Assembly: GCA_900473915.1 (NCBI GenBank)
Contig: UCNG01000018.1
Location: 1-40,344 of the forward strand
Direction: 5' to 3'
DNA from: Hyphomicrobiales bacterium
GTDB lineage: Bacteria > Pseudomonadota > Alphaproteobacteria > Rhizobiales > Rhizobiaceae
Length of the DNA stretch: 40,344 nucleotides
Part shown: one piece after another, positions 14,905-34,684 of the stretch
Numbering within the stretch: the first letter of the stretch is position 1
Layout of the letters: every line of letters starts with the position of its first letter
Translations under genes and position numbers: made by a program
The notes under the pieces: generated by a model
What the model was told of the DNA's origin: nothing
What the model saw: the letters and a program-made list of their open reading frames with translations, nothing else
Database searches by the model: none

Positions 14905-14959
14905 CCTTGCGCGAACCTTGTCTGGGTAAGCCAGCTTTGGCCAGCTTCGGACAAGCTTG
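14905..14959. promoter_or_regulatory. Divergent motA / DUF1217-flgF control region with phased repeats
   Basis: On the minus strand TCGCGCAAG (14914-14906) lies about 52 bp before the motA start, with CAAGG repeated exactly 11 bp apart (14920-14916 and 14909-14905). On the plus strand CCAGCTTTGG and CCAGCTTCGG form a tandem 10-bp repeat at 14931-14950, followed by AAGCTT. The same TC[AG]CGCAAG motif precedes flgB, fliF and flgE. Phased direct repeats suit an OmpR-family regulator; FtcR is the inferred binder. Confidence 0.45.
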
Positions 14960-15001
14960 ACCTTTCATAAAGAGCGTAAATTTCAGCAGGGGGTCATGCG
15001 C

Positions 15002-15790
15002 ATGGTCGATACGATGACGAGCTATCGCCTGATCGCGTCGAATATGGCGCGGTCGTTGCAGCGTGTTTCGAAGGAACCGATGGTGGAGCGGGAAACCGCC
15101 TACTACAAGGAGAATATCGGCAAGGTGAAATCCATCGATGATTTCATGGCCGACAGCCGCCTTTATAATTATGCGATGAAGGCGTTCGGTCTGGAGGACA
15201 TGGCCTTCGCCAAGGCGTTCGTGCGCAAGATATTGACGGAAGGCATCAAGAGCGACGATGCCATGGCCAACAAGCTGACCGACAAGCGCTACAAGGAATT
15301 TGCCACCGTCTTCGATTTTGCGGGCAAGGGCGCGGAGGCTACCCAGAGCACCGCTGCGCAGCAGGGCGTCGTGGACAAATATGTTCGCCAGACGCTGGAG
15401 ACGGAAGCCGGAAGCCAGAACGAAGGCGTGCGGCTGGCGCTCTATTTCCAGCGCAAGGCGCCGACGATCACCAATGCCTATGAAATCCTTGGCGACAGGG
15501 CGCTGGTATCGATGATCCAGACGACCTTCGGCTGGCCATCCTCGATATCCAATGCCGATATCGACAAGCAGGCGAAGATGATCGAGGACAAGATCGACTT
15601 CACCAAAATGTCCGATCCCGATTATGTCTCGAAGCTGATTTCGCGCTTTACCGCCATGTATGAGATGAACAACCCGACCGCGAGCAGCCCGGCGTCGATT
15701 GCGTCCCTGCTTCTGGGCGGCACCTCTTCGGTCGGCATTTCGATGGACATCTTGAGCACCTTGCAGAACTTCAAGCCGGGCGGGCGCTAG
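15002..15790 (+). CDS. DUF1217 flagellar-cluster protein
   Basis: Conserved in rhizobial flagellar clusters just before flgF; I know it as a DUF1217 protein with no assigned biochemical role. 262 residues, no signal peptide or membrane spans, mostly alpha-helical with many Lys/Asp/Glu and recurring short motifs (YYKENIGKVKSIDDF and NYAMKAFGLEDMAFAKAFVRK). I chose the ATG at 15002 because GGGGG lies eight bases upstream; an ATG at 14996 is too close to it, and the frame extends to a TTG at 14957. Stops 3 bp before flgF, so it heads the flgF-fliI operon. I infer a soluble assembly or structural factor. Confidence 0.9.
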   Translation: MVDTMTSYRLIASNMARSLQRVSKEPMVERETAYYKENIGKVKSIDDFMADSRLYNYAMKAFGLEDMAFAKAFVRKILTEGIKSDDAMANKLTDKRYKEFATVFDFAGKGAEATQSTAAQQGVVDKYVRQTLETEAGSQNEGVRLALYFQRKAPTITNAYEILGDRALVSMIQTTFGWPSSISNADIDKQAKMIEDKIDFTKMSDPDYVSKLISRFTAMYEMNNPTASSPASIASLLLGGTSSVGISMDILSTLQNFKPGGR

Positions 15791-15793
15791 GCG

Positions 15794-16525
15794 ATGCAGA
15801 ATAATTCGATCTATGTCGGGCTTTCCTCGCTCATCACGCTGGAACGGCGGATGGATTCCATTGCGCAAAACATCGCCAATGTCTCCACGGTCGGTTTTCG
15901 GGGCGAGGGCACCAAGTTCGAAACCATCGTTTCGAGCAAGGCCAGCGACGATGTGAGTTTTGCCACCGCAGGCAAGAGCTTCATCCGCACCGAGGCGGGC
16001 CCGATGATCAAGACCGACAATCCGCTGGATGTCGCGGTCAAGGGCGATGTGTGGATGTCTGTCTCCACGCCGCAGGGCCAGATCTATACGCGGGACGGGC
16101 GCATGAACATGCTGCCGACGGGCGACCTCGTCACCGTCACCGGCCATCCGGTTCTCGATGTTGGCGGCGCGCCCATCGTGCTCAATCCGGCTGGTGGCGC
16201 GCCGAAGATTTCGAGCGACGGCGCGATCTACCAGAATGGCGCGCAGATCGGCGCCATCGGTCTCTTCACCATTCCCGCCGATGCCGACCTCACCTATGCG
16301 GGGACGTCCGGCGTGATCCCGAACAAGCCCGCCCAGCCGGTGGCCGATGACAACAGCGTGGGCGTCGTGCAGGGCATGATCGAGGGGTCGAATGTCGATG
16401 CCATGACGGAGATGACCCGCCTCATCAGCGTGAGCCGCGCCTTCGAGCAGGTCAATAATCTGCTGGCGCAGCAGGAAACCACCGTCTCCGAAGCCATCAA
16501 GACGTTGGGCTCCAGAAACGGATGA
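15794..16525 (+). CDS. flgF: Flagellar proximal rod protein FlgF
   Basis: Rod subunit between the MS-ring side and FlgG. 243 residues with the N-terminal rod/hook signature SLITLERRMDSIAQNIANVSTVGFR, a central D1-type domain (GDVWMSVSTPQGQIYTRDGRMNM) and the C-terminal coiled segment ending in LLAQQETTVSEAIKTLG. Exported by the flagellar type III apparatus, so no Sec signal. Separated by 3 bp from the DUF1217 gene and overlapping fliI by 4 bp. Away from the other rod genes, as is usual in rhizobia. Confidence 0.95.
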   Translation: MQNNSIYVGLSSLITLERRMDSIAQNIANVSTVGFRGEGTKFETIVSSKASDDVSFATAGKSFIRTEAGPMIKTDNPLDVAVKGDVWMSVSTPQGQIYTRDGRMNMLPTGDLVTVTGHPVLDVGGAPIVLNPAGGAPKISSDGAIYQNGAQIGAIGLFTIPADADLTYAGTSGVIPNKPAQPVADDNSVGVVQGMIEGSNVDAMTEMTRLISVSRAFEQVNNLLAQQETTVSEAIKTLGSRNG

Positions 16526-33760: not shown

Positions 33761-33780
33761 ATTTTAGTATATGCTAAAAT
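33761..33780. promoter_or_regulatory. 20-bp AT-rich dyad upstream of ftcR
   Basis: ATTTTAG (33761-33767) and CTAAAAT (33774-33780) are perfect inverted arms around TATATG. It is the only sizeable AT-rich dyad in the 342-bp gap and is 105 bp before the ATG. Size and symmetry resemble LuxR-family operators; VjbR is reported to control ftcR in Brucella, so it is a candidate site. It could also contain a -10 region. Confidence 0.4.
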
Positions 33781-33884
33781 GCATCCCAATTTATTGCGGG
33801 CAACTAATTGCCATTGTTGCTGATTCCCTCCCCCAGTTATTGCTAGCCTGCTTGGGCTAACATATTGATTCGGAAGGCGGGCCG

Positions 33885-34568
33885 ATGATCGTTGTCGTAG
33901 ACGACAGAGATATTGTGACTGAAGGATACTCATCCTGGTTCGGTCGCGAGGGCATCACGACAACAGGTTTTACCCCTACAGATTTTGATGAGTGGGTGGA
34001 GAGCGTTCCCCAGCAGGACATCATGGCTGTCGAAGCCTTCCTGATCGGCGAATGTGCCGACCAGCATCGGCTTCCGGCCCGGATTCGTGAACGCTGCAAG
34101 GCACCCGTCATCGCCGTCAACGACCGCCCGTCGCTTGAACATACGCTGGAGCTGTTTCAATCTGGCGTTGACGATGTTGTCCGCAAGCCGGTCCATGTGC
34201 GTGAAATCCTTGCGCGCATCAATGCCATCCGCCGCCGGGCGGGTGCGTCGGCTGCTTCCAGCGACAACGGCACCGAGCTTGGCCCGATCCGCGTTTTTTC
34301 CGATGGCCGCGATCCGCAGATCAACGGCGTCGATTTTCCGCTGCCGCGCCGCGAGCGCCGCATCCTGGAATATCTGATTGCCAATCGCGGCCGCCGTCTC
34401 AACAAGGCGCAGATTTTCAGCGCGATCTACGGCATTTTCGACAGCGAAGTCGAAGAAAACGTCGTCGAAAGCCATATCAGCAAGCTGCGCAAGAAGCTGC
34501 GCGAGCAGATGGGTTTCGATCCGATCGATTCCAAGCGCTTCCTCGGCTACTGCATCAATATCGAGTGA
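33885..34568 (+). CDS. ftcR: FtcR/Rem flagellar master response regulator
   Basis: OmpR-type transcription factor that drives flagellar genes in Brucella (called Rem in Sinorhizobium). 227 residues: receiver domain about 1-118 and winged-helix DNA-binding domain about 128-225 (LPRRERRILEYLIANRGRRL, ENVVESHISKLRKKLREQMG). The receiver keeps the acidic pair DD at 6-7 and Lys101, but the phosphate-accepting aspartate is Glu50 in DIMAVEAFLIGE. It therefore cannot be phosphorylated in the normal way. A 342-bp upstream gap carries the CtrA-like box and the AT dyad. Confidence 0.95.
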   Translation: MIVVVDDRDIVTEGYSSWFGREGITTTGFTPTDFDEWVESVPQQDIMAVEAFLIGECADQHRLPARIRERCKAPVIAVNDRPSLEHTLELFQSGVDDVVRKPVHVREILARINAIRRRAGASAASSDNGTELGPIRVFSDGRDPQINGVDFPLPRRERRILEYLIANRGRRLNKAQIFSAIYGIFDSEVEENVVESHISKLRKKLREQMGFDPIDSKRFLGYCINIE

Positions 34569-34675
34569 TATTGCTGCGCCTCCCGCCCCCTCCAGTACCG
34601 TGATTTCGAACGCAGTTTTTTCGGAATCGCGTCGGTCCTCCCAGTAAAAGCGTAAAAAATCCCGAGGCTACAGTT

Positions 34676-34684
34676 TCACGCAAG
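34676..34684 (+). promoter_or_regulatory. Candidate FtcR box upstream of flgE
   Basis: TCACGCAAG lies within TTTCACGCAAGCGTGG, which also forms a CACGC/GCGTG dyad. The 7-base core CACGCAA is shared with the flgB site and the 9-mer fits TC[AG]CGCAAG. It is about 138 bp before the flgE ATG. No clear second half at 11 bp was seen. Confidence 0.4.

What the first reader, a model, noticed from the sequence alone, without database searches (positions are those of the whole stretch)
14905..34684. Shared TC[AG]CGCAAG motif upstream of motA, flgB, fliF and flgE: candidate FtcR box
Seen: TCGCGCAAG before motA (14914-14906, minus), TCACGCAAG before flgB (19305), TCGCGCAAG before fliF (26918), TCACGCAAG before flgE (34676). 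Three of the four have a second element exactly 11 bp away: CAAGG/CAAGG at motA, TCACGCAAG/TCGCACAAG at flgB, TTCGCG/TTCGCG at fliF. Known: OmpR-family regulators bind direct repeats one helical turn apart, FtcR is of that family, and it is reported to bind upstream of fliF. Inference: this is the FtcR site and these are its operons.
Basis: partly seen in the sequence, partly recalled or inferred. Interest (0 to 1): 0.75.

Follow-up and report, generated by a model that had tools for sequence, protein, structure and literature searches.

The report
FtcR/Rem box at flagellar promoters
A short DNA switch in front of most flagellar basal-body operons of this Brucella/Ochrobactrum relative, kept across many related bacteria, is very probably where the flagellar master regulator FtcR (called Rem in rhizobia) sits to turn the genes on.

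Summary
The bare 9-mer is not enriched in the window (5 found, 2.19 expected; 7 of 100 shuffles reach 5). It is the core of a longer element: an upstream half with a nearly invariant A (at its clearest CAAG 11 bp upstream), TTCRCRCAAG, exactly 10 bp, TANNNT. In 27 same-genus loci it precedes flgB, fliF and flgE in 27 and motA in 26. A weaker variant precedes DUF1217-flgF-fliI; further boxes precede flhA and a FlgJ-like gene just past the window. In 40 family loci a weight matrix gives 101 hits against a mean of 0.6 for permuted matrices: flgE 32/38, fliF 20/22, flhA 29/34, with few hits at other genes. The box stays at fliF where fliF lies 28-37 kb from the regulator gene. Outside the family, fliF promoters have it in 11 of 22 FtcR+ and 0 of 18 FtcR- genomes. 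Best reading: the operator of FtcR/Rem, an OmpR-type activator replacing the -35 contact. Binding is not shown here, and the published FtcR ChIP motif (TGTGGGCA) differs.

The parts
14890..14923 (-). Box upstream of motA: distal CAAG (14920-14917), proximal TTCGCGCAAG (14915-14906), N10, TAGGTT (14895-14890)
   Evidence: (30.4 bits)
14938..14971 (+).
   Evidence: CAGC-TTCGG[AG]CAAG-N10-CATAA in 26 of 27 genus loci; the remaining row, L002, is an unrelated match; 15.2 bits, far below the other four
19307..19340 (+). Box upstream of flgB: distal ACGCAAG (19307-19313), proximal CTCGCACAAG (19315-19324), N10, TAGGTT (19335-19340)
   Evidence: (33.6 bits)
26909..26942 (+). Box upstream of fliF: proximal TTCGCGCAAG (26917-26926), N10, TAGTTT (26937-26942)
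   Evidence: (41.3 bits)
34667..34700 (+). Box upstream of flgE: proximal TTCACGCAAG (34675-34684), N10, TAGCTT (34695-34700)
   Evidence: (37.5 bits)
33885..34568 (+). ftcR: OmpR/PhoB-type response regulator with Glu50 at the usual phospho-Asp position; inferred to bind the boxes
33695..33709 (+). TTAA-N7-TTAA, a CtrA-like site upstream of ftcR (function not shown)
   Evidence: (27 of 28 genus sequences)
33795..33802 (+). TGCGGGCA upstream of ftcR, one base from the published FtcR ChIP motif TGTGGGCA; TGYGGGCA in 24 of 28 genus sequences

Best explanation
The motif is the core of the operator of FtcR (Rem in rhizobia) in promoters of the hook-basal-body operons. Inferred mechanism: two FtcR subunits bind head to tail, one on a strong promoter-proximal half (TTCRCRCAAG), one on a weaker upstream half about one helical turn away. 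The box ends 10 bp before a -10 hexamer (TANNNT) and takes the place of the -35 element, so FtcR recruits RNA polymerase as a class II activator, as PhoB does on a pho box (recalled). Because the receiver domain has Glu where the phosphorylated Asp normally is, activity is probably set by the amount of FtcR and not by a kinase. Shown here: sequence, conservation, fixed spacing, promoter set, co-occurrence with FtcR. Inferred: FtcR as the bound protein, the -10 assignment, class II activation, regulation by level.
For: Genus, 27 loci: flgB 27/27, fliF 27/27, flgE 27/27 (26; L002 was cut by my fetch and its site is), motA 26/27 (23, 3 cut ones; L019 lacks it). Strict pattern over the 27 FtcR+ genus genomes: 125 hits, 110 within 25 kb of ftcR, 15 elsewhere (places); the backwards control pattern gives 33 in the same genomes (my sum). 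Forty family loci, FtcR at 48-82% identity: 101 matrix hits at 15 bits against mean 0.6, max 2, for 30 column-permuted matrices; upstream of flgE 32/38, fliF 20/22, flhA 29/34, the gene before motB 2/14; fliC 0/34, flgK 0/39, flgL 0/39, flbT 0/40, flgD 0/39, motB 0/38, motC 0/38, ftcR 0/40, fliP 0/26, flaF 1/40, one hit at flgG, 16 hits unassigned. Spacer of 10 bp: 102 of 103 genus and 79 of 87 family matches among spacers 5-16. Of 19 matches in 20 hand-picked stretches away from rem, 12 are at fliF (9 on the rem contig, 28-37 kb off; 3 on another contig), 2 at DUF1217, 2 at flgF, 3 other (distances). Outside the family: fliF promoters 11 of 22 FtcR+ against 0 of 18 FtcR- at 10 bits. Named S. 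meliloti record: boxes before fliF, flgE, flgB, motA, DUF1217 and the gene before motB; none at 8 bits before visNR, the flagellins or rem. Literature: FtcR binds upstream of fliF (Leonard 2007 as cited in PMC9456535, whose authors call their ChIP-seq consistent with it); Rem directly activates class II hook-basal-body genes and is active without phosphorylation (PMC9812332 passages).
Against: I saw no footprint or binding data on the box. The only published FtcR motif I saw is TGTGGGCA, 118 of 363 ChIP peaks, with EMSA support at ftcR and betI; it is absent from all four promoter sets. Two same-genus genomes (G010, 69% complete; G032) keep motA and flgB boxes without a detectable FtcR, though a true FlgE is not found either. 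In the family set L104 has FtcR, flgE, fliF and flhA but no box at 15 bits, L106 has FtcR and no hit, and in all 6 flgE, 2 fliF and 5 flhA promoters miss the threshold. Outside the family 11 of 22 FtcR+ fliF promoters score below 10 and the -10 is mostly not kept. FtcR travels with one flagellar lineage (FliF of FtcR- genomes is about 28-36% identical), so another co-inherited regulator would show the same pattern.
Confidence: 0.85

Rival explanations
1. The box is the operator of another regulator co-inherited with this flagellar lineage (a LuxR-type such as VisNR or VjbR, or an unknown protein); FtcR acts elsewhere.
For: The published FtcR motif differs. FtcR and this flagellar lineage are co-inherited, so phylogeny cannot separate them fully. 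VjbR is reported to be required for fliF, flhA, motB and flgE in Brucella (PMC8781033 passages).
Against: Halves in direct orientation about 11 bp apart fit an OmpR-type dimer better than the inverted repeats usual for LuxR-type proteins (recalled). The box marks class II operons, which Rem is reported to activate, and not the rem gene, which VisNR activates. Direct FtcR binding upstream of fliF is reported.
Confidence: 0.1
2. The element is a variant core promoter: TTCRCG/TTGACG acts as a -35 for the housekeeping or an alternative sigma factor, with no activator needed.
For: TTSRC resembles TTGAC and a -10-like TANNNT follows at fixed distance.
Against: The gap from TTCRCG to TANNNT is 14 bp, too short for sigma70 (16-18, recalled). 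Conservation runs through CAAG and the upstream half. Simple patterns for sigma54, FliA and CTTGAC-N15/18-TAT promoters match none of the four promoter sets.
Confidence: 0.04
3. Chance resemblance of a GC-rich 9-mer.
For: The bare 9-mer is not enriched in the window and is common in the nearest genome.
Against: Promoter-restricted conservation over genus and family, 101 hits against 0.6, spacing fixed at 10.
Confidence: 0.01

Closest known systems
PhoB pho box promoters (OmpR/PhoB family; geometry recalled, not from a call)
   Same: Half-sites in direct orientation about 11 bp apart, ending about 10 bp before the -10 and replacing the -35; class II activation
   Different: Half-site is TTCRCRCAAG/CAAG, not TGTCA; upstream half degenerate at most promoters; regulator lacks the phospho-Asp
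Rem regulon of Sinorhizobium/Agrobacterium (class IB regulator of class II flagellar genes)
   Same: Window FtcR is 48-82% identical to the 40 family orthologues fetched; similar gene neighbourhood; box before fliF, flgE, flgB, motA and DUF1217 in a S. meliloti record
   Different: In the window fliF, ftcR and flgE are close together; in many rhizobia fliF is about 30 kb from rem, and a further box precedes the gene before motB
Published FtcR ChIP-seq motif TGTGGGCA (B. melitensis, PMC9456535; passages seen)
   Same: Ends in GGGCA, followed by A at the ftcR promoter, as in the CAA core of the box; TGYGGGCA is conserved upstream of ftcR in 24 of 28 genus sequences
   Different: Absent from motA, flgB, fliF and flgE promoter sets and from the window
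CtrA box TTAA-N7-TTAA
   Same: Site of an OmpR-family regulator used in alphaproteobacterial flagellar control (recalled)
   Different: Found upstream of ftcR (27 of 28) but in none of the four promoter sets

Membership tests
OmpR/PhoB-type tandem operator | Two half-sites in direct orientation about one helical turn apart | tested here: inconclusive
   Over 175 distinct core sites (genus and family pooled) CAA stands exactly 11 bp upstream in 47 and CA 10 bp upstream in 114. Clear CAAG repeats at motA and flgB; degenerate at fliF and flgE
OmpR/PhoB-type class II activator site | Fixed distance to a -10 element, occupying the -35 region | tested here: met
   Spacer of 10 in 102 of 103 genus and 79 of 87 family matches among spacers 5-16; that TANNNT is the -10 is inferred, I saw no transcription start
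FtcR/Rem regulon promoter | Box conserved at orthologous class II flagellar promoters | tested here: met
FtcR/Rem regulon promoter | Box present with FtcR and absent without it | tested here: inconclusive
   fliF promoters 11/22 FtcR+ against 0/18 FtcR-, but FtcR- genomes carry a different FliF lineage, and G010/G032 keep two boxes without FtcR
FtcR/Rem regulon promoter | Direct binding of FtcR/Rem to the box | not testable with these tools
   Only the report that FtcR binds upstream of fliF (citing Leonard 2007)
FtcR ChIP motif TGTGGGCA | 8-mer present at the promoters | tested here: not met
   0 of 28, 28, 23 and 28 rows for flgB, fliF, motA, flgE; 0 in window
CtrA box | TTAA-N7-TTAA | tested here: not met
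   0 in all four promoter sets

The most novel reading that the evidence does not exclude
One operator code with rigid geometry (upstream half, TTCRCRCAAG, exactly 10 bp, TANNNT) governs the hook-basal-body operons of the FtcR/Rem flagellar lineage across Rhizobiaceae and, in degenerate form, other Hyphomicrobiales, read by a regulator that has lost its phosphorylation site. The published 8-mer then describes a second class of site, used at ftcR itself and at non-flagellar targets, not the flagellar operator.
Probability: 0.5. Interest if true: 0.7.

Novelty: new member of a known kind. Interest (0 to 1): 0.55.

Why it matters
FtcR and Rem are described as flagellar master regulators, but I saw no such operator for their flagellar promoters in the listings (some cut to the first 10-25 rows) or in the passages read of seven papers. 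One search was malformed, and the two primary papers, Rotter 2006 and Leonard 2007, are not held, so an earlier description cannot be excluded. The box gives a predicted regulon at base resolution, is consistent with flagellins and the regulator gene not being direct targets through it, conflicts with the published ChIP motif in a checkable way, and gives an aspartate-less response regulator a defined promoter geometry.

Tried and rejected
Bare 9-mer enrichment in the window: not significant. The published motif as explanation of the four promoters: rejected. CtrA, sigma54, FliA and a simple rhizobial sigma70 pattern: none match. The 8 same-genus FtcR- genomes as negative controls: uninformative, since only G010 and G032 match FlgE at all, with partial FlgG-like matches (best E 1.6e-13). 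The strict pattern over the order was not analysed for enrichment; outside the family the -10 is mostly not kept.

Dropped or cut rows: one search kept only 5 rows for flgB because the DNA left of flgB is not homologous in most loci; redone from the right anchor. One search has 23 motA rows: L001, L002, L005 were cut by my 20-kb fetch, L007 and L019 were not anchored; L007 was recovered, and L019 shows no motA box. The L002 row is not the DUF1217 promoter. Of the 127 FtcR+ family genomes I fetched 40, chosen by hand to span identities. In one search the 20 stretches were picked by hand from a listing that was cut short; one (L177) held no match. In one search the 22 FtcR+ genomes are those outside the family with a close FliF; 5 further FtcR+ genomes (G200, G250, G254, G297, G301) without a close FliF were left out; the 18 FtcR- were taken by hand from the upper part of that list, and one (L210) holds only 195 bases.

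Gene names rest on NCBIfam matches (the fliM and fliG matches are below the curated cut-offs), on order and annotation in the S. meliloti record (motA, DUF1217), or on the eye (flhA, FlgJ-like).
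Full report
The four 9-mers and the stated 11-bp partners are in the sequence. The 9-mer alone says little: 5 copies against 2.19 expected, with 7 of 100 shuffles reaching 5, and 186 copies in the nearest held genome. Four of the five lie in the 2,219 intergenic bases of a 29,885-base flagellar stretch. The fifth, at 30628 in motC, is not among the matrix hits.

What it is part of. The window's own assembly is not held. FtcR was found in 27 of 35 same-genus genomes as a close match; I fetched all 27 loci. 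Their promoters share one element: upstream half, TTCRCRCAAG, 10 bp, TANNNT. The proximal 10-mer has pairwise identity 0.98 (motA), 0.88 (flgB), 0.99 (fliF) and 1.00 (flgE), against 0.42, 0.37, 0.39 and 0.53 in the 40 bp upstream. A weight matrix from these sites scores the four window sites at 30-41 bits; the next best in the window is 10.5. With a later family-wide matrix the next are the DUF1217 variant at 15.2 and a 12.2-bit hit at 3528.

The flgB promoter is telling. The window and L001, L002, L003, L005 share one upstream sequence (ATCACGCAAG-T-CTCGCACAAG-N10-TAGGTT); the other 23 loci have another (CGCAAGC-TTGACGCAAG-N10-TAAGTT in most). Two different upstream sequences carry the same box geometry.

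More promoters. A variant (CAGC TTCGG[AG]CAAG N10 CATAA) precedes DUF1217-flgF-fliI in 26 of 27 loci, divergent from the motA box. A box precedes flhA, about 6.4 kb after ftcR in G001 and beyond the window end. Among the 21 named loci with FtcR at 86% identity or more (L110-L128, L150, L154; 19 titled Brucella, Ochrobactrum or Falsochrobactrum, 2 Rhizobiales bacterium), a hit at the flhA position is seen in 20 (not L127), and one about 9.7-10.5 kb after ftcR in 21 (my tally, 13 bits). In five loci looked at, the latter precedes a FlgJ-like gene (by eye). No hit lies before fliC in the window.

Genome-wide specificity. The strict pattern gives 125 hits in the 27 FtcR+ genus genomes, 110 within 25 kb of ftcR and 15 elsewhere. 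The backwards control pattern gives 33 in the same genomes (my sum), so hits outside the cluster do not exceed background. The strict pattern misses the window-type flgB box (CT in place of TT).

Family level. FtcR/Rem is found in 127 of 151 family genomes at E 1e-30. In 40 fetched loci the genus matrix gives 101 hits at 15 bits against a mean of 0.6 (max 2) for 30 permuted matrices: flgE 32/38, fliF 20/22, flhA 29/34, the gene before motB 2/14, flaF 1/40 (L091, where flaF follows ftcR and no flgE was found), flgG 1, and 16 unassigned, 8 of them at -5.5 to -6.0 kb from ftcR, where the gene before motB would start. Misses: flgE in L083, L084, L099, L100, L102, L104; fliF in L104, L109; flhA in L096, L100, L104, L108, L109. 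Of 19 matches in 20 hand-picked stretches away from rem, 12 are at fliF, 2 at DUF1217, 2 at flgF and 3 not assigned; 9 of the 12 fliF sites are on the rem contig, 28-37 kb away, and 3 on another contig. A named S. meliloti record has boxes before fliF (33.1 bits), the gene before motB (30.3), flgE (30.2), motA (24.6), flgB (19.2) and DUF1217 (14.5). It also has a 23.6-bit hit inside flhB about 80 bp ahead of a hypothetical gene, a 10.4-bit hit just before fliN, and 12.1- and 9.3-bit hits with no assigned gene; permuted matrices give 0-3 hits at 8 bits. The six Bartonella loci with ftcR (L151-L153, L155-L157) have hits at the fliF and flgE positions in 6 of 6 (by position).

Geometry. Among spacers of 5-16 bp between CAAG and TANNNT, 10 accounts for 102 of 103 genus and 79 of 87 family matches. 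Upstream of 175 distinct core sites, CAA stands exactly 11 bp away in 47 and CA 10 bp away in 114. The tandem repeat is exact at some promoters and degenerate at most, with a nearly invariant A (0.89 in the family-wide matrix).

Beyond the family. Order-wide, 32 of 150 genomes have FtcR at E 1e-30, 27 of them outside the family. At fliF promoters 11 of 22 such genomes reach 10 bits, often with a GCAA repeat 11 bp apart but a changed -10; 0 of 18 FtcR- genomes do, the best being 7.3. FliF in FtcR- genomes is a different lineage, which weakens this as a test of FtcR itself.

The regulator. FtcR is an OmpR/PhoB-type response regulator. The phospho-Asp column, placed by alignment to RegX3, holds Glu in 53 of 68 sequences, with R 6, S 3, G 2, Q 2, N 1 and one not printed; the region ENVVESHISKLRKKL is strongly conserved. 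PMC9812332 (passages) describes Rem as aspartate-less, active without phosphorylation and directly activating class II genes. PMC9456535 (passages) cites Leonard 2007 for direct FtcR binding upstream of fliF and calls its own ChIP-seq consistent with that.

Conflict with print. The same paper reports TGTGGGCA as the top motif, in 118 of 363 ChIP peaks, tested by EMSA at ftcR and betI. It occurs at none of the four promoter sets. Upstream of ftcR, TGYGGGCA is present in 24 of 28 genus sequences, so that element is conserved at ftcR but is not the flagellar box described here.

Mechanism. I infer a tandem FtcR dimer covering the -35 region and contacting RNA polymerase at promoters that lack a -35. 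Binding, activation and the -10 assignment are inferred; conservation, spacing, promoter set and co-occurrence are shown.

Noticed in passing
window 33695-33709: CtrA-like TTAA-N7-TTAA upstream of ftcR, in 27 of 28 genus and 16 of 40 family sequences, against 1.25% in mononucleotide shuffles of the genus regions. A CtrA motif at S. meliloti rem was postulated by Rotter 2006, but ChIP saw no binding there (PMC4433202 passages).
   Followed up: partly
window 33795-33802: TGCGGGCA upstream of ftcR, one base from the published FtcR motif; TGYGGGCA in 24 of 28; part of an inverted repeat TTGC-GG-GCAA.
   Followed up: partly
window 19100-19374: The DNA upstream of flgB is shared by only 4 of 27 same-genus loci (L001, L002, L003, L005); the others have different sequence but the same box geometry.
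   Followed up: partly
window 26952: The first ATG of the fliF ORF is not conserved in relatives and starts only 9 bases after the -10-like hexamer, so the true start is probably further in.
   Followed up: no
L067, L068 (G032, G010): Two same-genus genomes keep motA and flgB boxes but have no FtcR and no true FlgE match, suggesting loss of the fliF-ftcR-flgE block; the contig of G032 ends soon after flgB.
   Followed up: partly
window 12564-13034, minus strand: A gene just downstream of fliM, in the minus-strand flagellar run, matches NCBIfam NF046118, named BAB2_0123 family type IV secretion system effector; its place where fliN stands in S. meliloti makes that label worth checking.
   Followed up: no
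L219 16927-16960, minus strand: A 23.6-bit box inside the 3' end of flhB in S. meliloti, about 80 bp ahead of a hypothetical gene.
   Followed up: no
L219 (CP090106.1): The flagellar cluster lies on a 3.7-Mb record labelled plasmid pSymB; in S. meliloti it is chromosomal (recalled), so the label may be wrong.
   Followed up: no
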